The translations under genes were made by a program, and so were the position numbers. Source: Caenimonas aquaedulcis (lineage in GTDB: Bacteria; Pseudomonadota; Gammaproteobacteria; Burkholderiales; Burkholderiaceae_C). From it: a DNA stretch of 64,000 nucleotides. Below the pieces are notes generated by a model, which did no database searches, had not been told where the DNA came from, and worked only from the letters and a program-made list of their open reading frames with translations. Below, in pieces: positions 8,797 through 20,665 of the stretch (positions within the stretch are counted from its first letter, which is position 1; the number at the start of each line of letters is the position of its first letter). The stretch covers positions 2,756,618 through 2,820,617 of the forward strand of contig NZ_JADWYS010000001.1 of assembly GCF_015831345.1 (NCBI RefSeq), read 5' to 3'.

Positions 8797-8884
8797 GTGG
8801 GCTGTCGGCGCGCGCAAACATTTGCCGTTATGGATGCAAAGTTTTGCCGCAAATCCAGAGGGAGTGATGTGACTGGCCATGCGC

Positions 8885-11809
8885 TCAGCCTCGACCCACC
8901 AGGTCGTCCTTGCGCGGGCCCATCACGTCGATCGTGGTTCGGCTCTTGATGCGTCGATAAATCGGGTTGTTGACGCCGAGTCCTTGTGTGGCGCGATAGA
9001 TGTCCAAACCCTTACCCAGTTTGAAGACGATGCCGTTGTCGAGCATGAGAAATCGGTCGTGCTCGTTGCGATCACGCTCCCAGTTCAGATCGACACCCTG
9101 CCCAGCAAGCTGCTCGGCAATCAGGCGTAGATGCTGGTCACCCTCCGCGGTCTCCAGGGCATCGCGATGCCCAGTGATGATGCGAATCGACTTAACGGGC
9201 CCAGTGTCGCAAAGCCACTGGACGACCTCTTGCAGGTTGCGCCGCTGATGGGGCAAGTCAAGGTACGGGTCGATCAACAGCGCGTGAGTGGCTCCCCTAA
9301 GGTACTTGGCGCCGAAGATCTTGCCCCAACCCCAGTTGCTCTCCTCCGGCTGCAAGCGAAACTGCTGAAACACAAGCGATGCGGCGGCCTGAATCTGCTC
9401 CCATTCCGACGCCGACGGTGGACCGGCGACCATGACCGGCGCTGGCTCAGCCATCGGGGGCGGCACCGATGCCAAGACCACGGGCGCCGCAATGGCTGAA
9501 GGCACGTCAGGCGGAGTTCTCGTGGGGGTCACATTGGGCACCGTTGGCGCTCGCGCGGCTTCGCTGACGACCTCCGGCTCACTACCGAACAAGATCGCAA
9601 TCTTTTCGGAAGCCTTTTCCAGCGCGCTCGCCAGGTTGCTGGCCAGTCCTTCAAACGCGACCTTCTGCCCGCTGGAAGCGGCTTCGGCCGCTGCAGTGAT
9701 GTCCTTGCCGATTCGCTCCAGTTCGGCTTTAACCTCGCTCAGCGCTTTGTCCGGCAGTTCGCCAGCACGGCCAATCAGAATCTCGCCATGCTCACGGTGC
9801 TTCGCGCGCAAGTGTCCTTCAAGCGCCGTCGCCAGGATGGCACGCACCTGCGCGTAGAAGGCCTTCACCTCCCGCGTCTGACCGATGGTCGTCCCGCTTC
9901 CCCAGACGCCAGAAACGGCCCCGCGGGCAGATGAAATGCGCTCCGACACATCATCGGTCACGAAGTCCTCCAGCAGTTGGATGATCTTCGCCTCCTCAGC
10001 CTCGATCAGGCCCTGAAGCGCTTCGAGCGAGCGCGTCAAGAAGTCCCGAAGGCGAGCCGCCACATCGACCCTGATCTCCGCGCCGACATCCACCTGCTCG
10101 CTGATCCGCGCACTGCGATCAGCCAAGCCAGCAAGGTGGGCATCAAACTTCTCAACGAAGTTCGAGAACTCGGCCTGTTGCTCACCCAGCAGCCCCGCGA
10201 CACGCGGAAATATGGCGTTCGCCACCTTGGTCTGCAGGCCATGCATGTAGCCCCAAGTTCCGCTGCGCCGCGTGCGCCAGTGGCGGCCTGCATCGTCAGA
10301 TTCGAAATCACCCAGCACCTTGTCAGCCGACATAACGATGGCATCAATGCGCGCCTCGGCAAGCTTCACACCCCCGTCGATCGACCGCTTCAATAGCTCC
10401 GCGTCTTCGCTGACTGTTCGCGAAAACGCATCGCCCGCTTCACCAAATAGACGACGAAACTCGCCGAGCTTCTGCTCGGCTACCTCCTTGTCCTTTACGC
10501 TCTGCACGGCAGCGCGGCGCGCCTCGATGACACGCAGCATCTGCTCGATCTCGCTTGCCGCACCCGACCGCAGGGCTCGGGCCACATGGGCCAACCGCGA
10601 CTCCGACGAGAGAATCTGCATCAGCTTTTCTTGCATATCCAGCATGCCGCCAGGGTCGGCCGGATGCAGAGGGAAGTGAACTTCCTCGCCGCCGTTGGCC
10701 TTGCGGTGATTGATGGCCGAGGTGAACACCAGCTCAATCTCTCCCAGCTGCTCGCGGTAGCGTTCGAGCGCGGGTGAATCCTCGGAACCTTGGCCCAGGG
10801 CCATGAGTGTCGAATCGAGCTCTGCACGTAACCGTCGGCGCTCGCGATCAATGCGCATCTGAATCGGCTCGGGCTCCTCATCGTCGCTCTTGGCGGCGTT
10901 CACGTGCTGCTCGTAGGTCTGATCGACCTGTGTCACCACGAAAACAAGCTGCTTAACCGAGCCTCGCCGCAACAACGAAAGCAGAAAATCCTTCTCTGAT
11001 TGGTCGAACGCGGGTCCCGACTTGGTGAGGAACAGAACTGCGTCCACGTCTTTCACGATTTGCTCGGTGAGCGCGACACGGAAGCGTTCGGTGTCGCCCA
11101 GGCCAGGTGTGTCGATCAGGAGGATTCCCTGCTCTAGCAGGGGCGACGGCACAGTGATCTCGATGCGCTCGACCAAGCAGTGGTGCGGGCGCGAACCTGT
11201 GGTGAACTGCTTCAGTTCCTTGCGAAACGCGATGACTGCCTTTCGGTCATTCAGATCGGACACGCCGAGCTCAACAAACTTGCCCCCGTCGCCCAGGTAT
11301 TCGCGCTCAAGCGCCGCGAGCCGTGCGTCGTCAAAGATCTCGGGCTTGTCGGCACCGCCATCCGGCTTGCGGGTCGGAAAGCGCAGCCAGTTGGTGATCC
11401 GATGGGCCTCAAGGTCTTTGGGGTTGTCCGCATGCAGCAGCTTGAGGCCCAGCCACTGCTCACGCGACAGAAAGTTGACGCGCGCCCGCACGTCGGACCC
11501 ATAGCGGAAGGTGGTGACCGCTGCGGTCTCGGGGTTCGTTTCCTCTCCTGCCAGCTTTCGGCCCAGCAGCTCATTCACGAACGACGACTTGCCGGCCTTG
11601 AAACGGCCCACCACCGCAACGCGGTACTCACTGGGCACCGCTTGCTTTTCAAGCAGGTCCTGCAACTGGGTGGCGGTGCGGACGCACTCGTAGCCCAGCG
11701 CGAGGTGGCGCTCTTTCTCGTTAGCCAGCAACAACTGGCGTACCGACTCGATCTCGGCCTTGGCGGCCAGGATGTTTTGGCGCAGTTTGATGGGTGATGT
11801 CGCTGTCAT
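8885..11809 (-). CDS. Dynamin-like GTPase with C-terminal MITD1-type (PLD-fold) domain
   Basis: 974 residues. Seen: an N-terminal helix, then a dynamin-family GTPase domain with G1 GRFKAGKSS (68-76), G3 DTPGLGDT (233-240) and a G4-like TQVD (293-296). A long helical region follows (about 400-750, stalk-like), then a Pro-rich linker (about 765-805) with repeated PPxxP-like segments. The C-terminal domain from about 810 contains HDRFLMLDNG (917-926) and FKLGKGLDIY. That pattern (HDR, NG, K-G-GLDxY) matches the MIT C-terminal domain of human MITD1, a phospholipase-D-like fold that binds membranes. Inference: a membrane-acting defence effector. It is the last gene of the leftward helicase-methyltransferase operon. 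The start at 11809 has an AAAGGCG ribosome site. Confidence 0.85.
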   Translation of the reverse strand: MTATSPIKLRQNILAAKAEIESVRQLLLANEKERHLALGYECVRTATQLQDLLEKQAVPSEYRVAVVGRFKAGKSSFVNELLGRKLAGEETNPETAAVTTFRYGSDVRARVNFLSREQWLGLKLLHADNPKDLEAHRITNWLRFPTRKPDGGADKPEIFDDARLAALEREYLGDGGKFVELGVSDLNDRKAVIAFRKELKQFTTGSRPHHCLVERIEITVPSPLLEQGILLIDTPGLGDTERFRVALTEQIVKDVDAVLFLTKSGPAFDQSEKDFLLSLLRRGSVKQLVFVVTQVDQTYEQHVNAAKSDDEEPEPIQMRIDRERRRLRAELDSTLMALGQGSEDSPALERYREQLGEIELVFTSAINHRKANGGEEVHFPLHPADPGGMLDMQEKLMQILSSESRLAHVARALRSGAASEIEQMLRVIEARRAAVQSVKDKEVAEQKLGEFRRLFGEAGDAFSRTVSEDAELLKRSIDGGVKLAEARIDAIVMSADKVLGDFESDDAGRHWRTRRSGTWGYMHGLQTKVANAIFPRVAGLLGEQQAEFSNFVEKFDAHLAGLADRSARISEQVDVGAEIRVDVAARLRDFLTRSLEALQGLIEAEEAKIIQLLEDFVTDDVSERISSARGAVSGVWGSGTTIGQTREVKAFYAQVRAILATALEGHLRAKHREHGEILIGRAGELPDKALSEVKAELERIGKDITAAAEAASSGQKVAFEGLASNLASALEKASEKIAILFGSEPEVVSEAARAPTVPNVTPTRTPPDVPSAIAAPVVLASVPPPMAEPAPVMVAGPPSASEWEQIQAAASLVFQQFRLQPEESNWGWGKIFGAKYLRGATHALLIDPYLDLPHQRRNLQEVVQWLCDTGPVKSIRIITGHRDALETAEGDQHLRLIAEQLAGQGVDLNWERDRNEHDRFLMLDNGIVFKLGKGLDIYRATQGLGVNNPIYRRIKSRTTIDVMGPRKDDLVGRG

Positions 11810-11844
11810 GTGCTCGCCTTTAACGGTTGTTTATGGTGCCGGCT

Positions 11845-12034
11845 TCATGTGCGTCGTGACGGCAGGCGCCAGACCCATCGCTTCCGGCGCATGCCGAACT
11901 GCTCGGCGACGCTAAGCCCCAGGTCCTTGACCAATTGCCTCTCGGCGCCGGGCCAGAGGACGATCTCGCAGGTCCTTGCGCAGCCGGCGAACGAAGTCAT
12001 CTATGAGATCCTGTTCGGGCGATCTGTTTGCCAT
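11845..12034 (-). pseudogene. Possible small gene, apparently frameshifted, between methyltransferase and dynamin genes
   Basis: Two overlapping short reading frames lie here. The first starts at ATG 12034, only 2 bp after the methyltransferase stop, and runs 40 codons to 11912; it is charged and helical in character (SPEQDLIDDFVRRLRKDL). The second, in another frame, runs from ATG 12000 to 11845 (51 residues) and ends with a protein-like tail (LGLSVAEQFGMRRKRWVWRL). Joined by one frameshift they would make a single basic protein of about 60 residues. Either a decayed gene, a sequencing indel, or two chance frames. No family recognised. Confidence 0.3.
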
Positions 12035-12036
12035 AG

Positions 12037-15000
12037 TCAAGTCTTAGCAACGCGAATGCCGTCGGCAGTCAGTTCGAGCTGACCGCTACGGGCAAGGGAG
12101 CGCAACAGAGACTCGGTGGCCTCGGAGATCTTGGCCCCCGTGCGTGCGTAGCCCAACCACCGGGCCAAGACCTTGGGCACGTCAGCCTTTTCCACCCAAC
12201 CACGTTGCGAACGCAGCGCTGCGAGCAGCTGTGATTTGAGATGATCGCGCTCATAGCGATCGATGTCGCGCACGAGCAGGCCAAGCGCGCCACCCCTGTT
12301 CTCGGCGATGCCACGGCGAACTGCACGTCTAATGGCGTCATCCAGGACAGCGGCGATGGAGTTGCTCATTCGCTGGTGGCCGAGCGCGCGGGCCGCTTGG
12401 CGGATCAACGCATCGCGAGAGAGTGGGTTGCCCGCGTCAGACAGCGCGGCACGCAAGGCGCACATCGCGGCGCCATCCTCCAGGTCTGACTCACCGGCAC
12501 CGCCGTGACTCGCCGGCGGCGATTTCGGCTGTCTTGCAGCGCGCTTCTGTGCGGGCTCGGGCTCTTCGTCGGCGTCCAGGAATGATTGCTGCCCGGGCTG
12601 GGCGGCGCGGCGACGGGCACGCGGGCGCGCCGCTGCCTGAGCGGCCAGCACCTCTGCGCTGGGCGGCCGGTGGTTCAAACTGAAAGCGCCGCCTTCGCCT
12701 GCGCCCTTAGGCCAACCTCCGTGGCGCTCGACCACCGCATCCACCTGGTCCATCAACCCTTGCGTCGCTTGCAGTGAGGCATAGATCCGCCGCCAGTGAG
12801 CGATGTCTTCGTCGCTCAGTGAGCGGCTCGCCTTCCGGCGGTCGTCCAGCCACTTATGGAGAACTTGGTAGCCGCCGACGCTGTGTTGCCAGACTGATTC
12901 AAGCACTCCGTCGAATCCGCTGGTCGTACTAATCCGAACCTTACCAACTGGACCGTCCTTCGTTGCACGAATGTCCGCGAGGCCACGGCTCTTCTCGCCA
13001 ACCTGGTCCAGGGCCCTGGCGTTGCCAAAGAAGCTCGGTAGATCTGTACCTCTTGGCTGCTCGTTTCGCGTAATCGCCAGCGCAACGGGATGCGTTAGCG
13101 AATGCCATTCAAGCAATTGTTTTCCCAATCGCGACAGATCATCAAATGCGGTACGCGAAGCCGGAATCGGAATGCGCGGGAAGTCACCCTTCAAGAACTG
13201 ACCGTAGCGCTGTCGATAGCTTGGGCTGTGCAGAACGGCATAGAGATACTGAAAGACCTTTTCTGCGTTCAACGCGGCGCCTTGCTTTTCAGCATGCCAG
13301 TCAAAATCAGTCAAACCCATCGCATCGCGAAGCGAGCGGATGAACCGGACGTCAAGGTTTGGTGAGCGGTTCGGAAGGGCGGAAACGAGATCAGTCTCGT
13401 GTAAGTCCCGTCGGTCACCGTCTGGGTGATACAGCCAGAGCGGGAATATGTAGTTCACTTCCTTGAGTGAGACGGTGTGATGCTGCGTAATCTTTGTGGA
13501 ACAGAAAACGTGCTGGTAGATCCCGGGAATTTCAGTCGCCCGGGGGACGGAGATTCCCACGTTCGGCCCGGCCAAGAAGTGAGCGGTGGCGCGCTCACGG
13601 CGGTGTACAGCCACGTTGCTGTCATAGATAGTGACCCGGTCATCAAACGGGCGATATAGCACAGGGACTATGCGGCGCTTCCATGCCCCGGTTGCAAGTT
13701 CTCGCTTCGCCCGGTCATAGCTCCATTGGCTCTGTGTGCAAAGCTGAAAGAGCTGCCTAGCCTCATCTTCAGATCGCGTTGCGAGCAAGGCTTCAACTTT
13801 TTGGCGGGCGTTTTTGGCATCCCAAGAGATTGCAAACTCGTCGTGTGTCGTAACGATTCCAGGAGCAGGATCACCGTTCGGACTGAAGATTGTCGGTAGT
13901 CCCCAACCCGCTTCGTATTCCGCGCGGCCCACCTGCGCTTGGGGCTTGAATAGCCAGAACGGTGCGTTCGGTTCGAGAGTCTCGGGCTTTTCCCCATGGA
14001 GCGACATTGTGGCTAGGCGCTCGTACTTGCTGCTGCGCATACCCAGCACATCCAGGCTACGAACTGCCGATGCGAGCCCAGAGCAACGCGCGTATAACGC
14101 CACCGCGGCGCCTTGAGTGATGTCGAAGACGTTCTCATCTTTGGAACCGTCCTCCGCCTTCTCCTTCTTCTTGCTATTACCGTGCAAGTCAACAACCCAA
14201 ATTGCACCGAAGGTGTCCATTAAGTGCCGGCGCATGCCCTTGAAGGTCGGGTTATCGAGATACGAGTGGTCAGTGATGAAGCCCAGCACCCCCGCGCGTG
14301 CCTGAACAACTCGCTGCTCTGCGAAGCGAATGAACTTCACGTAATCGTTTTGCAGCCACTTCGCCTGCCCTGGCTTCTGAAGGTCAGGGTAGCCGCGTCT
14401 GTAGTCATGGACAGCCTCGACAGCCTCAGCCACGTTGTTGTTCACCGAGTGCCCAGAATACGGAGGATTCCCAATCACCACGGTCGTCGCTAGATGCTGC
14501 TTTACCGCATTAGCCGCCCGTGCCTCATGTGCCAGCATTGGCGCCATCAACTCAAACTGCGGCTGAACGTCAGTGGCAGGCTGCAGCGAGTTGGTCAAGA
14601 AAACCCGCACACGGGGACCACCTTCAGGGAAGCGATAGCCAGTGTCCGCCAGCTTGAGCCCAAGCTTCATGTGCGCGATTGCGTAAGGGGCCATCATCAA
14701 TTCGAAGCCGTGCATGCGGGTCAGTAGATGGTCACGAACGTACGTGTTCCATAACTCCAGTTGCTGCGCCTTGCTTTGCCCCGCTTTCTGCCACTTGACC
14801 AACATGTGGCGATGGATCAGGTCGATGAACTCAACGAGGAAGGTGGCGGTGCCCACCGCCGGGTCCAGTATTTGGACGAAGGCGCTCTCCGCCAACGTGC
14901 CGGCTGGTAGTTCCAAGCCAGGTTTGCGGCGCAGCATCTCGCCCCAAGTGATGGTGCTGGCCAGCCCGTCTTCGATGCCGAACTCGTTCTGCAGCACCTC

Positions 15001-16200
15001 GTGCACGCTGCGCACGATGAACTGCACGACAGGCTTTGGGGTATAGAAGACCCCGCGCTCCACGCGCATGGCGTTGTCATAAGCCGTCAGAAAGTCTTCG
15101 TAGAAATGGATGACGGGGTCGTCACCGGGGCGGGCGTTGTTGAAGCTGACCAGCACGGCATCCATCGGCGCCTGCCGCAGTTGTTCCACCACGGCATTGA
15201 CACCGAGTTCATCGAAGTCGATGCCCGTTCCGCGCGCGCGCCCTTTCATGCGGCTGCGGCCGGATGCGGCCAGGAAGTCCTGGAGCAGGTCCTGCAGGAA
15301 GGGGTTGGTGCTAGGAATCATCAGCGCCGCGTCGTCGGCCACCAGCCCCCCGCTGCTGCGCGAGACGCGTGCTGCAAACAGGCCATAGGTGATGGTCTGG
15401 GCGTACATGTCCGCGAAGCGGTCGTGCGTCAGGTCGGCCATCAGGTTGGCCTTGAACGCCTGGTACAGCGCTGTCAACGGCCCGGACGGGCCCTCGACTG
15501 CGAGAACCTCATTAGCGCGGGTTCGGATCGCCCGGGCCAGGTAAGCCAGGGCCAGTGCCAAGTCCTTTGCCGTGGTGACAGCCTCTCGGTAGCGCAGGCG
15601 AAAGGCCGAAGACCACCGCTGGCGCCAGCGTTGCTGACCCTGCGGGGTGTCGCCGTCTGGCGGCCAGCGCAGGTGATCGCGCATCGTGTTGGCAACACCT
15701 GCTAAGGCCAGGTTGGTGTCGGCGCCGTCCCAGCCCAGCACACGCAGTGTGGGCAGGTCACCTCGGTCCGACTCATCGGTGAAGTGCGCCAGCGCGATTT
15801 CGCGGTCGTTGGCGGGGCCGAAGCTAGAGATGAACAGCAGGTCTTGGGCATGCCAACGCTGGCGGCCCTTGTCCTTCTCGCGATTGCGCAGAGACAGGCC
15901 TTGCAGGACACGCCGCAGCACCACCATAGGCAGGCGTTGCTTGTCGAACTCGACGAAGAAGATGCCCCAGGGCTGTCCACTGGTGAGCGGACGCAACTGC
16001 TTGATGGTCTTGATGGCCACCTGGTGCTCGGGCTTGATGCCCAGTTCCTCGGGCTCGTAGTCGTAGAACGCATCGTCGATTGCTTCCAGGTCCACCGGCC
16101 AGTTCAGCTCGTCATGCAGGTAGCGCACCAACGACGTAATGCTGGTGGCGCTACGAAGACGTTCGATCAGCGGGTCTTGCGGTGCGACGCGGGTTGCCAT
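12037..16200 (-). CDS. Large ISP-type restriction-modification N6-adenine DNA methyltransferase
   Basis: 1387 residues. The methyltransferase core is preceded by RGVFYTPKPVVQFIV, has SAM-binding motif I DPAVGTATFLVEF (D446) and catalytic motif IV NPPYSGHS (578-585), typical of gamma-class N6-adenine enzymes. About 400 N-terminal residues precede it. The stretch to about 1140 corresponds to the target-recognition part of type ISP enzymes. Then a disordered basic/acidic linker rich in A, R, P and E and a C-terminal winged-helix-like region (from about 1215). Unlike classical single-chain ISP enzymes (LlaGI type), no nuclease or helicase motif is in this chain; those are on the adjacent gene at 16253-19381. 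A ribosome site AGGGA precedes ATG 16200. Probably host-marking and recognition component of the defence locus. Confidence 0.85.
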   Translation of the reverse strand: MATRVAPQDPLIERLRSATSITSLVRYLHDELNWPVDLEAIDDAFYDYEPEELGIKPEHQVAIKTIKQLRPLTSGQPWGIFFVEFDKQRLPMVVLRRVLQGLSLRNREKDKGRQRWHAQDLLFISSFGPANDREIALAHFTDESDRGDLPTLRVLGWDGADTNLALAGVANTMRDHLRWPPDGDTPQGQQRWRQRWSSAFRLRYREAVTTAKDLALALAYLARAIRTRANEVLAVEGPSGPLTALYQAFKANLMADLTHDRFADMYAQTITYGLFAARVSRSSGGLVADDAALMIPSTNPFLQDLLQDFLAASGRSRMKGRARGTGIDFDELGVNAVVEQLRQAPMDAVLVSFNNARPGDDPVIHFYEDFLTAYDNAMRVERGVFYTPKPVVQFIVRSVHEVLQNEFGIEDGLASTITWGEMLRRKPGLELPAGTLAESAFVQILDPAVGTATFLVEFIDLIHRHMLVKWQKAGQSKAQQLELWNTYVRDHLLTRMHGFELMMAPYAIAHMKLGLKLADTGYRFPEGGPRVRVFLTNSLQPATDVQPQFELMAPMLAHEARAANAVKQHLATTVVIGNPPYSGHSVNNNVAEAVEAVHDYRRGYPDLQKPGQAKWLQNDYVKFIRFAEQRVVQARAGVLGFITDHSYLDNPTFKGMRRHLMDTFGAIWVVDLHGNSKKKEKAEDGSKDENVFDITQGAAVALYARCSGLASAVRSLDVLGMRSSKYERLATMSLHGEKPETLEPNAPFWLFKPQAQVGRAEYEAGWGLPTIFSPNGDPAPGIVTTHDEFAISWDAKNARQKVEALLATRSEDEARQLFQLCTQSQWSYDRAKRELATGAWKRRIVPVLYRPFDDRVTIYDSNVAVHRRERATAHFLAGPNVGISVPRATEIPGIYQHVFCSTKITQHHTVSLKEVNYIFPLWLYHPDGDRRDLHETDLVSALPNRSPNLDVRFIRSLRDAMGLTDFDWHAEKQGAALNAEKVFQYLYAVLHSPSYRQRYGQFLKGDFPRIPIPASRTAFDDLSRLGKQLLEWHSLTHPVALAITRNEQPRGTDLPSFFGNARALDQVGEKSRGLADIRATKDGPVGKVRISTTSGFDGVLESVWQHSVGGYQVLHKWLDDRRKASRSLSDEDIAHWRRIYASLQATQGLMDQVDAVVERHGGWPKGAGEGGAFSLNHRPPSAEVLAAQAAARPRARRRAAQPGQQSFLDADEEPEPAQKRAARQPKSPPASHGGAGESDLEDGAAMCALRAALSDAGNPLSRDALIRQAARALGHQRMSNSIAAVLDDAIRRAVRRGIAENRGGALGLLVRDIDRYERDHLKSQLLAALRSQRGWVEKADVPKVLARWLGYARTGAKISEATESLLRSLARSGQLELTADGIRVAKT

Positions 16201-16252
16201 GTGGTGAGTCCCTGTGTGTTGATGATTCTTGTTGTGCGGAGAGAGACGAATC

Positions 16253-19200
16253 TCAGTTCAGCTCCATCCATGCGATGAGGCTGGGGCCGACGCCGGCAGG
16301 TGCTTGCACTTGACGGAAGTGGCCATTCTTCAAATACTTCTCGGCCTTGACCCGAACCTCAGACAACGTTGTCTGAGTGATCACGGTGTGCCGTGGTGTC
16401 TCTGGCGTGCAGGCGATCGCTCGGTCAATGGCCGATGCATCAGTGTCGGGTTTGTCGGCCTCAACGTCGTACATCAGCCATTGATTCGTACCGGCTTCTA
16501 ACGTCCAGGCGTCCGCGTCGAGTTCAGCATCTGTCTTGGCGGGGTCGCGTCCGGGTAGGCCGAAGCAGAAGAACACAGCGCGGGTACCAGGTTTGAGGTG
16601 CTGCTTCCCGGAGAACACTCGACCGGGAAGCGCTTGCAAGCGCTCCGGTAAGTCTGGATGCGCTCGCAGCAATGCCTGGTACGCCAGGTGCATGTTCTCT
16701 AGCGGGCTTGGAGCGCCTTCGTACTGGTGGTTGAAGTCCTTCAAGGCTTCGTAGTCGTCATCCGGCGTCAATAGCTTCTTGCCCTCAATGCCCAGAGCCT
16801 TGGAGATGACCAAGGTCTTGTGCGACACTTTGCTATACAACGCTAGCAGGCTGTCGAGCTCGTCCGGAGGCAGGAAGTTCCAGTACGCTACCGTGCCGCG
16901 CAGTTCCTTTACTTCTGGGTGATCTTTCACGATCTGCTTTTCGATCTCCGGATTCAAGCGTCGGTCGACCCGGCCGATGCGTTGCATCAGGCGTACCGGA
17001 TTCCAGTGCAGGTCATAGTTGATCAAGCGTGTAGCGTCTTGGAGGTTCAGGCCTTCGGACAGCACGTCCGTGGCAATCAGAACTCTCGTCTCTCGCCTTC
17101 CTTGTTTCGCGAGTTCGGGACTGCTCATGCCGTTGTAGTAGGGCGCGAACTGGCGGATCACGTCGCTGCGGCTGGTCTTGGTGGCCGAGTCGATCTGGTC
17201 GATACCCTGGATGCCCGCGGCCTCCAGCTCTTTCGCTAGATAGCGAGCCGTTGCCATGAACTCGCTGAAGATCATCACCTTGTGCTTTTTGAGGACCGAA
17301 TCCTTCTTCAGCAGGTCGATCAAGGCGCGAAGCTTGTCGTCGTGCTTGGGCTCGAACTGGCGCAACTCGGTGAGAAAGTCGGCAAGCTGGTCCAAGTCTT
17401 GAAGCGATTCCGCGAGCATTTGAGGAACGTCGTACTCATCGCGATCCAGTTCCGCGGCAGCTTCCAGCAGCTCGTCGGGCACGACATCCTCATCGACATC
17501 CTCATCGTCGATCACGCCGAAGAGCGCCTTTTGACGGGTATCGACCAGGCCAAGAAGTTCATCGTGACGACGTTTCCAGCGTTCGTAGGTGTCCTTCTCG
17601 TGCTTGGTGGTGCTGTTCTTCTGTACGAAGGCCATCACCTTCAACATCAGTTGCTGGCATGACATCTCGAATGCACGCGCTGAACTCTCGAAACGCTTGA
17701 GGAACAGCGTGCGGATTAGAGCTACCACCTGCTTCTGGCGGTTCGATGCGAAGGGGTCGATGTCCTTCTGATTCTTTAGGTAACCCAGCGGGTAGTACAT
17801 CGGCAGCACGAACAGCGGTTCCTTCTTGTTAAATGCTTTTTCAAGCTTTTTCAGCAGGTTGCCGTATGTCTTCTTCACCGAGTACGCAGCCACCTGCGGG
17901 TCGGTTCGACTCGGAAAGCTTGCCGAATTCTTGGAGCCTTGGGCTTCCTGGCTACGCTTGACGTAGGCCCGGCTACGCTGGACCACGAGTTCGCGAAACA
18001 AGTCATCGTGAGCCAAAAGGTCGGCAGCCTCGAACTCGGGCAGCTCGGCTTGCGTGGACATGTCACCGCCGACGCGCTTGCTGAGGTCCTTTTCAAGTTT
18101 TCGGAAGTGGCCAGGCAGCGAGTGGATGCCGAGCGTTTCCTTGAAATGGTCGGCCCGACGGCGCGAGAACAACTCTATCAAATGCTGCAGATCGATCAGC
18201 CGATTGTTGATCGGGGTTGCGGTCAGCAGGAACAGCTGCTTGTCTTCGGCCAGATCGAAGAGCTTCCAGTGGCGGGACGGAGCCGTTTCACCCTCACCTT
18301 TGACGCCGATGTTGCGAAAGTGGTGAGCCTCATCGACGATCACCACATCGGCTTTGCTTTTCAGGACCGCCAGCTTTTCGGGCCAGTCGCCCCCGCGCTG
18401 TAGATCCGTGTGATTGATGATGACGAGATTGGAGAAGTCGCCGAAGAGGTGCGGCAAATATCGCTTGAGCGTGAACTCCCAAACCGGTTCGCGGCCTGAC
18501 TTCGGCACCACTAGCAAGACACGCTTGCGGTCGTGCTCGATGAGGCGCTCGATCAACATCAAACCGACGAATGTCTTGCCCAAGCCGACGCCATCGCAAA
18601 GGAAAGCGCCGCCATGCTTGCCGGCAATTTTCAGCAGTGAACCGTAGCCGTCGCGCTGGTATTGGTCGAGCTTGCCGTACATGGCCGACTTGCCCTGCTC
18701 CCATTCGCCCGCGGTTGCTTGGTGGTTGCGAAAGTAGGCTTCCAACGCTTTGGCATACACCTCGAACGGCAGATATTGCCGCGTATGGCGCTCAATGACT
18801 TGCAGCACCTCGTCGGAGATGTCGACGGCGTCTTCCCAGTGCCTATCGAACCACTCTTGCAGCAGGTCCACTTCGCGACGAAGCTGCACGTTCAACTCGA
18901 CATTGGCAGTCAGGCCCTGAGCGGTGAAATTGCTCGAGCCGACGAGAGCAGAGGAGCCGACGACCGCGAGTTTGGAGTGGGTGATATAGGCCTTGGCGTG
19001 GAACTTCTTCTTGGCATAGACCCGGCACTTGATCTTGCCGCTCTTGATCGCTTCGACGATCCCAGACACGCCAGTCAGAAAGTCGTTCTTCAGCTTTTCG
19101 TTCTCGATACTGCCGTCTAACAGGCGCTGCACCCTCGACGACCCTTCGACAAGCGCCTTGTGCGTTCGCTTGGTCACCTCGTCACCCATCAGGATGCGGA

Positions 19201-19381
19201 TCTCTTCAAGGGATTGCCACTGTCCGTCAAGCGCGAGCAATGACCCGATTTCGAAGTAGCCTGTGGCGATGTCAAATCGCGAAGAGATTGAGCACCACTC
19301 GCGAAGGTAGTTGACAACCTTCCAGTCGTCCTCGCTGTTGTCGACGATGAATAACTCGCTTCCTGATTTTTGTTGGGTCAT
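16253..19381 (-). CDS. PLD-nuclease / SNF2-type helicase fusion
   Basis: 1042 residues from ATG 19381. This start was chosen because the PLD domain follows directly; an in-frame start at 19510 would add 43 residues that do not look conserved. The N-terminal phospholipase D-like nuclease domain has FHAKAYITH (H128) followed by GSSNFTAQGL and NVELNV. Superfamily 2 (SNF2-like) helicase motifs follow: CDGVGLGKTF (K269), VDEAHHFRN (D350), LTATPINN, and in the second RecA lobe VLIATDVLSEGLNLQ and LMQRIGRVDRR. Likely an ATP-driven DNA translocase with nuclease activity, first gene of the leftward operon with the methyltransferase 52 bp downstream. It most resembles the helicase part of ISP-like and DISARM-like defence systems. 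Confidence 0.88.
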   Translation of the reverse strand: MTQQKSGSELFIVDNSEDDWKVVNYLREWCSISSRFDIATGYFEIGSLLALDGQWQSLEEIRILMGDEVTKRTHKALVEGSSRVQRLLDGSIENEKLKNDFLTGVSGIVEAIKSGKIKCRVYAKKKFHAKAYITHSKLAVVGSSALVGSSNFTAQGLTANVELNVQLRREVDLLQEWFDRHWEDAVDISDEVLQVIERHTRQYLPFEVYAKALEAYFRNHQATAGEWEQGKSAMYGKLDQYQRDGYGSLLKIAGKHGGAFLCDGVGLGKTFVGLMLIERLIEHDRKRVLLVVPKSGREPVWEFTLKRYLPHLFGDFSNLVIINHTDLQRGGDWPEKLAVLKSKADVVIVDEAHHFRNIGVKGEGETAPSRHWKLFDLAEDKQLFLLTATPINNRLIDLQHLIELFSRRRADHFKETLGIHSLPGHFRKLEKDLSKRVGGDMSTQAELPEFEAADLLAHDDLFRELVVQRSRAYVKRSQEAQGSKNSASFPSRTDPQVAAYSVKKTYGNLLKKLEKAFNKKEPLFVLPMYYPLGYLKNQKDIDPFASNRQKQVVALIRTLFLKRFESSARAFEMSCQQLMLKVMAFVQKNSTTKHEKDTYERWKRRHDELLGLVDTRQKALFGVIDDEDVDEDVVPDELLEAAAELDRDEYDVPQMLAESLQDLDQLADFLTELRQFEPKHDDKLRALIDLLKKDSVLKKHKVMIFSEFMATARYLAKELEAAGIQGIDQIDSATKTSRSDVIRQFAPYYNGMSSPELAKQGRRETRVLIATDVLSEGLNLQDATRLINYDLHWNPVRLMQRIGRVDRRLNPEIEKQIVKDHPEVKELRGTVAYWNFLPPDELDSLLALYSKVSHKTLVISKALGIEGKKLLTPDDDYEALKDFNHQYEGAPSPLENMHLAYQALLRAHPDLPERLQALPGRVFSGKQHLKPGTRAVFFCFGLPGRDPAKTDAELDADAWTLEAGTNQWLMYDVEADKPDTDASAIDRAIACTPETPRHTVITQTTLSEVRVKAEKYLKNGHFRQVQAPAGVGPSLIAWMELN

Positions 19382-19869
19382 TTCTTTTTGAGGTAAGTCT
19401 GGTGATCTGGTTGCCGAATCACATGTGCGCAGTGTTGGCCGCTCGACTTTCAGCACATGGGTCTTGGCGCAAGTATCTAAGACTTTCGATCTCGTCCCAA
19501 CAGTGAGCACGACTGTTCACCGTGTAATTCTTTAGTGCGTCGCTAGCAGCGACATCGTTTCCCCGTCGCATTCTGTCTTTAAAAGCTTCTGTTAACAAGC
19601 CGAGCGCACTTTATGAGGGATAACCGAGTCCTCACATGACGCTGGTACAAATTTTCCAAAAGGAGTGGGCAGTTATGGCGGTTGATCAAAGGTCTGGCCG
19701 TTTGACCAACCCAAAATGGACCAGCCTTGAGGAGAGACGCCGTTAGATCGGGGGTATGCAGCGCGTGTGCGTTGCGCTCTACGGTTTGGACAAAAGGGGA
19801 TCTGGCAATTCATTGAGCTTGCCTGGCGCGTCCGGCGAATTGAGAATGGCCTAGTAGTTGGAGAAGTTT
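19382..19869. other. Divergent intergenic region between helicase and HNH genes, with a 23-residue ORF
   Basis: 488 bp, noticeably more AT-rich than the flanking chromosome, and therefore a likely site for the promoters of both divergent defence transcripts. A small ORF at 19675-19746 (plus strand; MAVDQRSGRLTNPKWTSLEE then RRR and stop) has an AAAAGGAG tract 9 bp before its ATG. It could be a leader peptide or a chance frame. No repeat, tRNA or attachment site was recognised. Confidence 0.4.
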
Positions 19870-20604
19870 ATGGCAGTAACCAGCGGTCCCGGGAACGGGT
19901 TTTGGACAAGAGATGAGACCATCCTCGCGTTAGACCTGTATTTGCGCGCAGGTCATTCGTTGGATGCGGGTGATTCGCGGGTTGAGGAGCTGTCGGCGTT
20001 TTTGCGCAGCTTGCCTTTGCATCCGCCCGAGAAGCGCAAAGGTTCGTTCCGAAATCCCGCTGGTGTCGCATTCAAGATTGGAAACCTGCGCTCTGTTCAG
20101 ACAGGGAAAGGCCTCAAGAACGTTTCGGCAATTGACAGGGAAGTTTGGGCAGAGCTGGGGGACCAGCCGGCAAGGGTGAACGAATTGGCTGCGCAGATTC
20201 GCCAAGCTGGTACTCAGTTGACTCTCCTGCCTCCGAATCACAGCGCCGAACTAGCCGACATCGAGGACGAGCACTTCGCTGAGGGCGGAGCCACCGTTGT
20301 TTTGCATCGTCGGCTGGAGCGGGCGAAGAACATGCGTTTCAAGCTACTTGGTAAGAGGCAGAAATTGGGGCCGCTCAGGTGCGATGCTTGCACGACTGCC
20401 TCGCTTCTACCGGATGTGAGTATGGCGCCGGCCGCATTTGAGGCACACCACATCCGACCACTTGGAGTGTCTGGAGAAACGCAAACTAGCGTCAAGGATC
20501 TGGCTCTCTTGTGCGCAACATGCCACCGGCTCATTCATCGAGCAATGGTTGTAGGGAAGCGATGGATATCGCTGCCAGAATTCAAATCGCTCATTGGACA
20601 TTGA
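19870..20604 (+). CDS. HNH endonuclease, restriction-type
   Basis: 244 residues from ATG 19870, preferred over TTG 19858 because a GGAG ribosome site at 19860-19863 sits 6 bp upstream. The N-terminal domain (FWTRDETILALDLYLR ... SFRNPAGVAFKIGNL, about residues 12-80) recurs in front of HNH domains in restriction-like proteins and may read DNA. The C-terminal HNH domain has two CxxC zinc pairs (CDAC, CATC) and FEAHHIRPL with H193-H194, then LLCATCHRLIHR. Codon use looks less GC-biased than in flanking genes. Divergent from the helicase-methyltransferase-dynamin operon. It could be a stand-alone type IV/II nuclease or the cleaving component of that locus. Confidence 0.82.
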   Translation: MAVTSGPGNGFWTRDETILALDLYLRAGHSLDAGDSRVEELSAFLRSLPLHPPEKRKGSFRNPAGVAFKIGNLRSVQTGKGLKNVSAIDREVWAELGDQPARVNELAAQIRQAGTQLTLLPPNHSAELADIEDEHFAEGGATVVLHRRLERAKNMRFKLLGKRQKLGPLRCDACTTASLLPDVSMAPAAFEAHHIRPLGVSGETQTSVKDLALLCATCHRLIHRAMVVGKRWISLPEFKSLIGH

Positions 20605-20665
20605 TTGCAAAGACGGCAATCGTTAAGCACCGGAATGCTGGCCACAACCACCTACACTCCGCGCT

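What the first reader, a model, noticed from the sequence alone, without database searches (positions are those of the whole stretch)
8885..20604. Candidate anti-phage defence locus next to gyrB combining PLD-helicase, ISP-type methyltransferase, dynamin-MITD1 fusion and HNH nuclease
Four large, non-housekeeping genes sit between gyrB and a DnaQ-like gene, with visibly lower GC than the neighbours. Three are co-oriented: a PLD-nuclease/SNF2 helicase, a 1387-residue adenine methyltransferase of the ISP type without its own helicase, and a dynamin-like GTPase with a C-terminal MITD1-type domain. A divergent HNH nuclease completes the block. The methyltransferase could mark self, the helicase could recognise and cut unmarked DNA, and the dynamin could attack membranes or block lysis. 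I do not recall a named system with exactly this gene set; relatives are ISP/LlaGI-type systems, DISARM and LeoA/Eleos-type dynamin systems.
Basis: partly seen in the sequence, partly recalled or inferred. Interest (0 to 1): 0.85.

Follow-up and report, generated by a model that had tools for sequence, protein, structure and literature searches.

The report
Portable dynamin beside a restriction-modification pair
The stretch holds a two-gene DNA-cutting and DNA-marking defence pair and, next to it, a membrane-type motor protein (a dynamin with a domain like that of human MITD1) whose relatives turn up as an add-on beside several quite different anti-virus systems.

Summary
The four genes are real and correctly described, but they are not one four-gene system. 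(1) The PLD-SNF2 helicase (16253-19381) and the ISP-type methyltransferase (12037-16200) form a pair: helicase directly upstream of methyltransferase in 7 of 7 loci examined. It looks like an ATP-dependent, methylation-gated restriction system, type ISP-like but split into two proteins. (2) The dynamin with a MITD1-type domain (8885-11809) is a portable accessory. Of 18 loci with this gene family, 12 sit in or beside DNA-modification systems of five kinds: BREX-1, BREX-3-like, DUF499/Hma-like, type III R-M, and this ISP core; 6 do not. In two loci 10.3 kb, starting at the dynamin start codon, is 86% identical while nothing aligns upstream. (3) The HNH gene was not found in the other six pair loci and probably belongs to the site. 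The MITD1-type domain is also the C-terminus of BrxL proteins and shares an HDR motif with human MITD1, a membrane-binding protein. I infer that the pair destroys unmarked DNA and the dynamin is a second, membrane-level layer; no activity was tested. My paper searches listed no report of this association.

The parts
16253..19381 (-). PLD-nuclease / SNF2 helicase (1042 aa from ATG 19381; mechanical ORF to GTG 19510)
   Evidence: PLDc_2 79-225, SNF2-rel_dom, ResIII, Helicase_C 726-850 (numbering of the 1085-aa ORF). GLGKT, DEAH and QRIGR in 7 of 7 relatives.
18836..19276 (-). PLD-like nuclease domain of the helicase
   Evidence: PLDc_2; H127, K129, N150, E161 invariant in 3 of 3 aligned proteins; the string HAKAY seen in 6 of 7, not in L066.
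12037..16200 (-). ISP-type N6-adenine methyltransferase, 1387 aa, no helicase domain
   Evidence: Type_ISP_C E 7e-66, N6_Mtase; PADLOC REase_MTase_IIG PDLC03610 590 bits; profile of three relatives matches LlaBIII 1.2e-42 and LlaGI 3.7e-41 in PDB; NPPY and DPAxGTATFLVE conserved in 3 of 3.
12748..13863 (-). Type ISP C-terminal specificity domain of the methyltransferase
   Evidence: Pfam PF18135, residues 780-1151.
12040..12600 (-). C-terminal extension of the methyltransferase (residues ~1201-1387), weak PDC-S37 / DUF3320 / ProA-like
   Evidence: PADLOC PDC-S37 1.5e-5; hmmsearch over ORFs of 27 sources (window plus 26 loci) finds it only in the window and L006; the C-termini of L065 and L068 are not in view.
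8885..11809 (-). dynamin-like GTPase with C-terminal MIT_C (MITD1-type, PLD-fold) domain, 974 aa
   Evidence: Dynamin_N 6.7e-22, MIT_C 6.8e-21; 17 relatives; AlphaFold model mean pLDDT 73.1.
10928..11620 (-). dynamin GTPase core (residues 64-294)
   Evidence: Pfam Dynamin_N; GRFK(A/T)GKS, DTPGL and TQxD kept in 14 of 14 proteins.
8924..9322 (-). MIT_C (MITD1-type, PLD-fold) domain (residues 830-962)
   Evidence: Pfam MIT_C 75.1 bits against cut-off 25; human MITD1 2ymb E 1.2e-23 and HDR motif; Foldseek to 4a5z TM 0.81 by target length, rmsd 2.3.
19858..20604 (+). HNH endonuclease gene: neighbour, judged not part of the system
   Evidence: HNH 2.3e-5, above cut-off; no tblastn match at the 6 other pair loci; a distant HNH relative lies beside DnaQ in sister genome L084.

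Best explanation
The locus is a two-protein restriction-modification core with a portable membrane-type accessory. Inferred core mechanism: the ISP-type methyltransferase marks an adenine in its recognition site on host DNA; on unmarked incoming DNA the partner SNF2 motor is loaded, moves along DNA, and its PLD domain cuts. Shown: families, motifs and pairing. Inferred: site recognition, complex formation, translocation, cutting. Accessory: a dynamin-like GTPase without an evident transmembrane helix (GTPase head, long helical stalk, flexible linker, MIT_C domain) encoded downstream. The gene family has repeatedly been placed inside or beside methylation-based systems of different design. Inferred: it acts at the inner membrane, with MIT_C as a lipid- or protein-binding module, as a second layer (membrane stabilisation or remodelling, or delay of lysis) when DNA restriction is overwhelmed. 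The HNH gene is not part of it.
For: Pair: helicase directly upstream of methyltransferase in 7 of 7 loci with a helicase at least 53% identical (window; L036, L037; L065-L068). Four of these (L065-L068) were found by the helicase alone. From the methyltransferase side, 3 of 3 with the same N-terminus have the helicase and 0 of 3 with another N-terminus do. Dynamin: 12 of 18 loci lie in or beside modification systems of five kinds. Five type III loci carry it between Mod and Res or beside Res and form one clade. L008 and L010: 10,333 bp at 86% from position 9996, i.e. the dynamin start; no match at E 1e-10 upstream. Control: of 23 ORFs flanking 7 loci that match only in the GTPase region, none matches a methyltransferase, restriction-enzyme, BrxC or PglX model. 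MIT_C is also the C-terminus of BrxL and of human MITD1. Precedent: B. subtilis DynA delays phage lysis (PMC8844932, abstract).
Against: Six of 18 dynamin loci have no modification system in view, so it does not need one in cis. The association may partly reflect defence islands, although insertion between mod and res argues against that. In the control, one ORF of L029 matches an HmaC model (3.7e-19) and one of L020 is a kinase that matches models including PglW, so the control is not empty of defence-like matches. No activity was measured. The dynamin is 227 bp from the methyltransferase; no promoter-like site was found in the gap, so co-transcription is open. Dynamin plus this core is seen in only two loci, which are sister sequences. 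DynA did not co-localise with viral DNA entry sites (section heading of PMC8844932).
Confidence: 0.6

Rival explanations
1. MIT_C is an active PLD-type nuclease, so the dynamin is a GTP-driven DNA-cutting effector like the proposed BrxL-HKD.
For: Rakesh and Krishnan (PMC12839542, sections 19 and part 1 of 35 read) call the BrxL C-terminus an HKD endoDNase with Lys to Arg. The dynamin has an invariant H-D-R in 14 of 14.
Against: The same H-D-R motif is in human MITD1, described in a cited title as a PLD fold that binds membranes. The motif's Asp position varies (D, N, S or G) among the dynamins, and only one such motif is kept per chain.
Confidence: 0.15
2. The dynamin tethers the restriction complex to the membrane at DNA entry; MIT_C or the methyltransferase C-terminal extension is the docking surface.
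For: Among methyltransferases whose C-terminus is in view, the extension occurs only in the two next to a dynamin.
Against: Two sister sequences only. The same search found no such extension in other partner systems, and dynamins without a partner exist.
Confidence: 0.15
3. The dynamin is an independent defence gene that lands in defence islands; its proximity to modification systems has no functional meaning.
For: Six of 18 loci are without a modification system. The core differs next to a near-constant dynamin in L008/L010.
Against: It lies inside gene runs (between mod and res; between brxC and pglX), and the type III association persists over a clade whose compared members are 59-72% identical.
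Confidence: 0.25
4. All four genes form one new defence system, as first read.
For: Contiguity in the window; methyltransferase, then an HNH gene, then dynamin also in L006, though that HNH is a different protein.
Against: Dynamin absent from 5 of 5 other pair loci where its place is in view; window-type HNH not found in 6 of 6.
Confidence: 0.05

Closest known systems
Type ISP restriction-modification (LlaGI, LlaBIII)
   Same: Methyltransferase core and Type_ISP_C specificity domain; ATP-dependent motor and nuclease expected.
   Different: Motor and nuclease are on a second protein, and the nuclease is of PLD type fused to a SNF2-like helicase.
CglI / NgoAVII (ATP-dependent PLD restriction enzymes)
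   Same: Endonuclease plus SF2 motor acting by ATP-driven movement on DNA (CglI: PMC5737866, abstract start and passages). That the nuclease is of PLD type with a B3 domain, and NgoAVII altogether, are recalled.
   Different: Nuclease and motor are one chain here; no B3 domain in the Pfam scan; specificity is expected to sit in an N6-adenine ISP methyltransferase.
BREX-related type 2 (HKD-SNF2 helicase, DUF499, N6-MTase, DUF3780)
   Same: HKD nuclease fused N-terminally to a SNF2 helicase, with an N6-MTase (PMC12839542 section 30).
   Different: No DUF499 or DUF3780 among the block's four proteins; the methyltransferase is ISP type.
BrxL with C-terminal HKD/MIT_C (BREX-1)
   Same: Same C-terminal domain as the dynamin (four BrxL proteins, E 3e-28 to 6e-33; BrxL model 845-974 bits).
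   Different: Attached to an MCM-like AAA+ ATPase (PMC12839542 section 19) rather than a dynamin.
Eleos/LeoA-type and DynA bacterial dynamins
   Same: Dynamin-like GTPase with helical stalk (Foldseek: BDLP, IniA, SynDLP, Campylobacter dynamin pair, LeoA).
   Different: C-terminal MIT_C; the LeoA model is far below cut-off (11.6 v 325 bits); found with DNA-modification systems.

Membership tests
Type ISP R-M | Methyltransferase with ISP specificity domain | tested here: met
   Type_ISP_C 223 bits; LlaBIII and LlaGI matches.
Type ISP R-M | Single chain also holding nuclease and SF2 motor | tested here: not met
   No helicase domain in the 1387-aa chain; motor on a separate protein. A nuclease in residues 1-230 is not excluded (model pLDDT 49.2).
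DISARM | DrmA, DrmB (DUF1998) and DrmC with an MTase | tested here: not met
   No DUF1998 in any of the four proteins; helicase below NCBIfam DrmD cut-offs (137.8 v 610 and 108.4 v 950).
BREX | PglZ and BrxC | tested here: not met
   Neither is among the families found in the four proteins.
BREX-related / Hma | DUF499 (HmaC) ATPase | tested here: not met
   No DUF499 in the four proteins; it is present beside the dynamin of L010.
Eleos / LeoA | LeoA-family dynamin over model cut-off | tested here: not met
   NF041922 11.6 v 325 bits.
MITD1-type (MIT_C) domain | Sequence and fold match to the MITD1 C-terminus | tested here: met
   Pfam 75.1 v 25 bits; 2ymb 1.2e-23; TM 0.81 to 4a5z.
MITD1-type (MIT_C) domain | Binds membrane lipid | not testable with these tools
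   Known for MITD1 from a cited title only.
Active PLD nuclease (helicase domain) | HxK ... N ... E set as in BfiI (set recalled) | tested here: met
   Invariant in 3 of 3 aligned.

The most novel reading that the evidence does not exclude
A dynamin-MIT_C protein is a general, exchangeable membrane-level effector for DNA-modification defence systems, and MIT_C is a shared output or docking module of BREX BrxL and of this dynamin. In that case it is a membrane- or protein-binding domain rather than a nuclease, and human MITD1, an ESCRT-III partner in cell division, carries a domain that also works in bacterial antiviral systems.
Probability: 0.3. Interest if true: 0.85.

Novelty: new variant of a known kind. 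Interest (0 to 1): 0.62.

Why it matters
If right, restriction-type systems of unrelated design share a plug-in that works at the membrane, which would link DNA-level and membrane-level immunity. It also questions the reading of the BrxL C-terminus as an HKD nuclease, because the same motif is kept in human MITD1, and makes that directly testable with purified domains. The helicase-methyltransferase pair is a compact, split ISP-like system that can be tested on its own.

Tried and rejected
Rejected: a single four-gene system (neighbourhoods). Rejected: exact match to a named system in PADLOC 2.0.0 or NCBIfam. Rejected: the 227-bp gap hides a remnant of the L006 HNH gene (no tblastn match there at E 10). 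Inconclusive: the fold of the methyltransferase N-terminus (AlphaFold mean pLDDT 49.2); I ran no fold search on it. A viral-contig scan found no dynamin relative at the patterns used. Rarity limited the counts: full-length dynamin in 1 of 300 genomes of the order, the own one (its three other matches are BrxL proteins), 2 of 199, 2 of 349 and 2 of 147, each including the genome used as centre; of the second ones, G628 was already known as L016 and G1229 has the coordinates of L002. Helicase in 1 of 321 genomes of the class at E 1e-60, the own one. More distant helicases in plasmids (510 records, nearly all under 60% identity) were not examined for their neighbours.

Counting notes. The 18 dynamin loci are: window, L002, L006, L007, L008, L009, L010, L011, L012, L013, L014, L015, L016, L017, L018, L019, L054, L060. 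L014 and L016 lack the MIT_C end, L015 is frameshifted near its end and L018 is a fragment (91 residues matched); all four are counted in the 18, L018 is not in the tree. In L010 and L054 the modification genes are on the opposite strand, divergent from the dynamin. L012 shows Res only and L016 only the first 80 residues of Mod. L006 and L054 are cut by a contig or region end. In L008 no DUF499 gene was seen; it is classed by HmaA- and HmaB-type matches. Dynamin absence at the pair: L036 and L037 judged from 18.0 and 19.5 kb regions, L066-L068 from whole records of 119, 53 and 75 kb (a search without its own positive control); L065 ends at a shortened methyltransferase and cannot be judged. 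HNH absence rests on about 2-8 kb upstream.

Control. Ten loci match only in the GTPase region (L020-L029); that they lack MIT_C was not tested. L023 and L027 had no host ORF in my ORF list; L028 and one ORF of L025 were dropped; 7 loci and 23 ORFs remain. PADLOC matches at E 1e-10: a kinase in L020 (PD-T4-6, mad6, PglW and other kinase models), a LeoA match in L022 and an HmaC match that by elimination is L029:8342-9544, whose start reads like a sugar dehydratase (recalled). So the contrast is 12 of 18 against none of 7 with a methyltransferase or restriction gene, and one of 7 with a doubtful HmaC match. The control loci come from other phyla than most test loci. On checking the draft I corrected three statements: the control was said to hold no BREX or Hma match, the dynamin was said to be absent from all six other pair loci, and the C-terminal extension was said to be absent where it cannot be seen.
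Full report
What is there. The block between gyrB and a DnaQ-like gene holds four large ORFs at the reported places. Pfam gives Dynamin_N plus MIT_C for the first, Type_ISP_C plus N6_Mtase for the second, PLDc_2 plus SNF2/Helicase_C for the third and HNH for the fourth. PADLOC and NCBIfam name no exact system: the helicase is far below the cut-offs of its nearest NCBIfam models (148 v 1100 bits for the PLD anti-phage protein, 138 v 610 for DrmD), and the dynamin scores 11.6 v 325 for LeoA. GC is lower than downstream but only slightly lower than around gyrB.

The helicase and methyltransferase are a pair. Searching 300 genomes of the order with the methyltransferase gave 6 with strong matches, the own genome included. 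In the two others whose match begins near the N-terminus (L036, L037) a helicase 53-56% identical to the window's lies directly upstream; in the three whose match begins at residue 200 or later (L038-L040) tblastn finds none. Searching viral contigs with the helicase gave four loci (L065-L068, 53-60% identity), and all four have the methyltransferase directly downstream (38-49% identity; in L065 it is cut short at the contig end). With the window this is 7 of 7. The PLD residues H127, K129, N150 and E161 and the methyltransferase NPPY motif are invariant in the three aligned proteins; the helicase motifs are in 7 of 7. PDB relatives of the methyltransferase are 7lo5 (DrdV, name recalled), LlaBIII and LlaGI. 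I read this as a type ISP-like system whose motor and nuclease are on a separate PLD-SNF2 protein. The nearest described designs are CglI (PMC5737866; abstract start and passages) and BREX-related type 2 (PMC12839542; section 30).

The dynamin is not part of a fixed set. It is absent from L036 and L037 as fetched and from the whole records of L066-L068; L065 ends before its place. Its own relatives were sought by two peptide patterns in a collection of 84,980 species genomes, in plasmids and in further genomes. Eighteen loci were examined, window included. Twelve lie in or beside DNA-modification systems: the ISP core (window; L006, methyltransferase 41% and dynamin 63% identical); BREX-1 (L009, BrxC 1564 bits; L019, PglX 1506 bits; each also has the other's gene); a BREX-3-like locus with BrxC and BrxF (L054); DUF499/Hma-like loci (L008 with HmaA- and HmaB-type matches, L010 with DUF499/HmaC and BrxF); and type III R-M (L011-L014, L016). 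Six do not: L002, L007, L015, L017, L018 and L060. L060 instead has a module with an Hsp70-like protein, also present in L019 and L054.

Two results speak for a portable but meaningful accessory. First, L008 and L010 share one DNA alignment of 10,333 bp at 86% identity that begins at position 9996 in both, one base into the dynamin gene as I set its start (9995); upstream nothing aligns at E 1e-10, and the two methyltransferases share only 23% over 260 residues. The core seems to have been exchanged right at the dynamin start. Second, on a tree of 17 dynamins the partner types, labelled by me, need 6 changes, the least possible for 7 labels, against a shuffled mean of 11.0 (as low in 0 of 200); the five type III rows form one clade at 100/100. 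The two ISP rows and the two DUF499 rows pair up as well, which 22 and 23 of 500 shuffles also reach; the two BREX-1 rows are apart and the solo rows need 3 changes; L015 has a long branch. For the three pairs among L011, L012 and L013 the dynamin is 59-72% identical and Res 83-84%, so the dynamin changes faster than its neighbour.

Control. Seven loci from the same scan that match only in the GTPase region have 23 flanking ORFs; none matches a methyltransferase, restriction-enzyme, BrxC or PglX model in PADLOC at E 1e-10. Three do match something: a kinase in L020 (33 models, the best 25 seen, PglW among them), a LeoA match in L022 and a doubtful HmaC match in L029.

The protein. Fourteen full-length sequences keep the GTPase motifs. 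The AlphaFold model (mean pLDDT 73.1, pTM 0.47, so domain placement is not reliable) shows a GTPase head, a long helical stretch to residue 741, a weakly predicted linker and a C-terminal domain. Foldseek places head and stalk with bacterial dynamins (BDLP, IniA, SynDLP, Campylobacter pair) and the C-terminus with human MITD1 (TM 0.81 by target length, 27% identity). No transmembrane segment was seen by hydropathy in five sequences. A loop around residues 510-524 (HWRTRRSGTWGYM) at the predicted stalk tip is well conserved and could touch membrane; this is inference.

The MIT_C domain. It is also the C-terminus of BrxL proteins (four examined, E 3e-28 to 6e-33, all BrxL by PADLOC). A 2026 survey calls this BrxL part an HKD endoDNase with Lys replaced by Arg, in 1030 of 2913 type-1 BREX taxa (PMC12839542, section 19); the words dynamin and MIT were not found in that paper's main text. 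But human MITD1 has the same H-D-R motif in the same place, and MITD1 is described as a PLD fold that binds membranes (title seen in the reference list of PMC9477494; the paper itself was not held). In the dynamins H, D and R are invariant while the motif's Asp position varies. I therefore favour a binding role over a nuclease role, without proof.

The HNH gene. It was not found at the other six pair loci. The HNH gene between methyltransferase and dynamin in L006 is another protein. In sister genome L084 the interval between gyrB and DnaQ holds different genes and a distant HNH relative (32% over 131 residues) beside DnaQ; L085 holds yet other genes. Only these two of six fetched sister regions had gyrB in view. 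The interval looks like a variable site.

Most likely mechanism. Pair: mark self by adenine methylation, move along and cut unmarked DNA (inferred from families and pairing). Dynamin: a second layer at the membrane, by analogy with B. subtilis DynA, which forms clusters on the cell membrane after infection and delays lysis (PMC8844932, abstract). Alternatives are nuclease, tether, or mere neighbour. The solo loci show that it can exist without a modification system in cis.

Novelty. Searches with dynamin plus BREX or phage defence terms, MITD1 with PLD or with BREX and ISP with PLD terms listed no paper that describes this dynamin association; most listings were capped at 10-15 titles and I judged by title and abstract start, opening five papers in part (PMC12839542, PMC9477494, PMC12003011, PMC8844932, PMC5737866). 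The single paper holding both MITD1 and BREX is a review on gastrointestinal cancer. Only open-licence papers are held, so absence there is not proof.

Noticed in passing
L019:11588-15945, L054:10731-14881, L060:12907-17046: A three-gene module (a protein starting MGFWHTGY with a possible zinc finger, a second unnamed protein, and an Hsp70-like protein) follows the dynamin, or in L019 the PglX gene after it, in a BREX-1, a BREX-3-like and an otherwise partnerless locus.
   Followed up: partly
L003, L004, L005, L042 C-termini: BrxL proteins end in a MIT_C domain with a motif (HDREIRxxNGWxxKIGRGLDFY) nearly the same as in human MITD1; this questions its reading as an HKD nuclease.
   Followed up: partly
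L008:9996-20309 and L010:9996-20297: A contig binned as Vicinamibacteria is 86% identical over 10.3 kb to Cognatazoarcus halotolerans; either recent transfer or a mis-binned contig.
   Followed up: partly
L054:3040-6518: A PsyrTA-like pair (PADLOC 464 and 920 bits) lies inside a BREX-3-like locus.
   Followed up: no
window 8797-20665; L084; L085: The gyrB to DnaQ interval is variable in two sister species of the same genus and may be an insertion hotspot.
   Followed up: partly
L014:9995-13218, L016:9663-12259: Type III loci with decayed genes: the L014 dynamin runs into a shortened Res; the L016 dynamin lacks MIT_C and its Mod is a fragment.
   Followed up: no
L036:4127-5452: An AAA_21/AbiEii-type ATPase gene follows the helicase-methyltransferase pair, so that pair may carry other accessories.
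   Followed up: no
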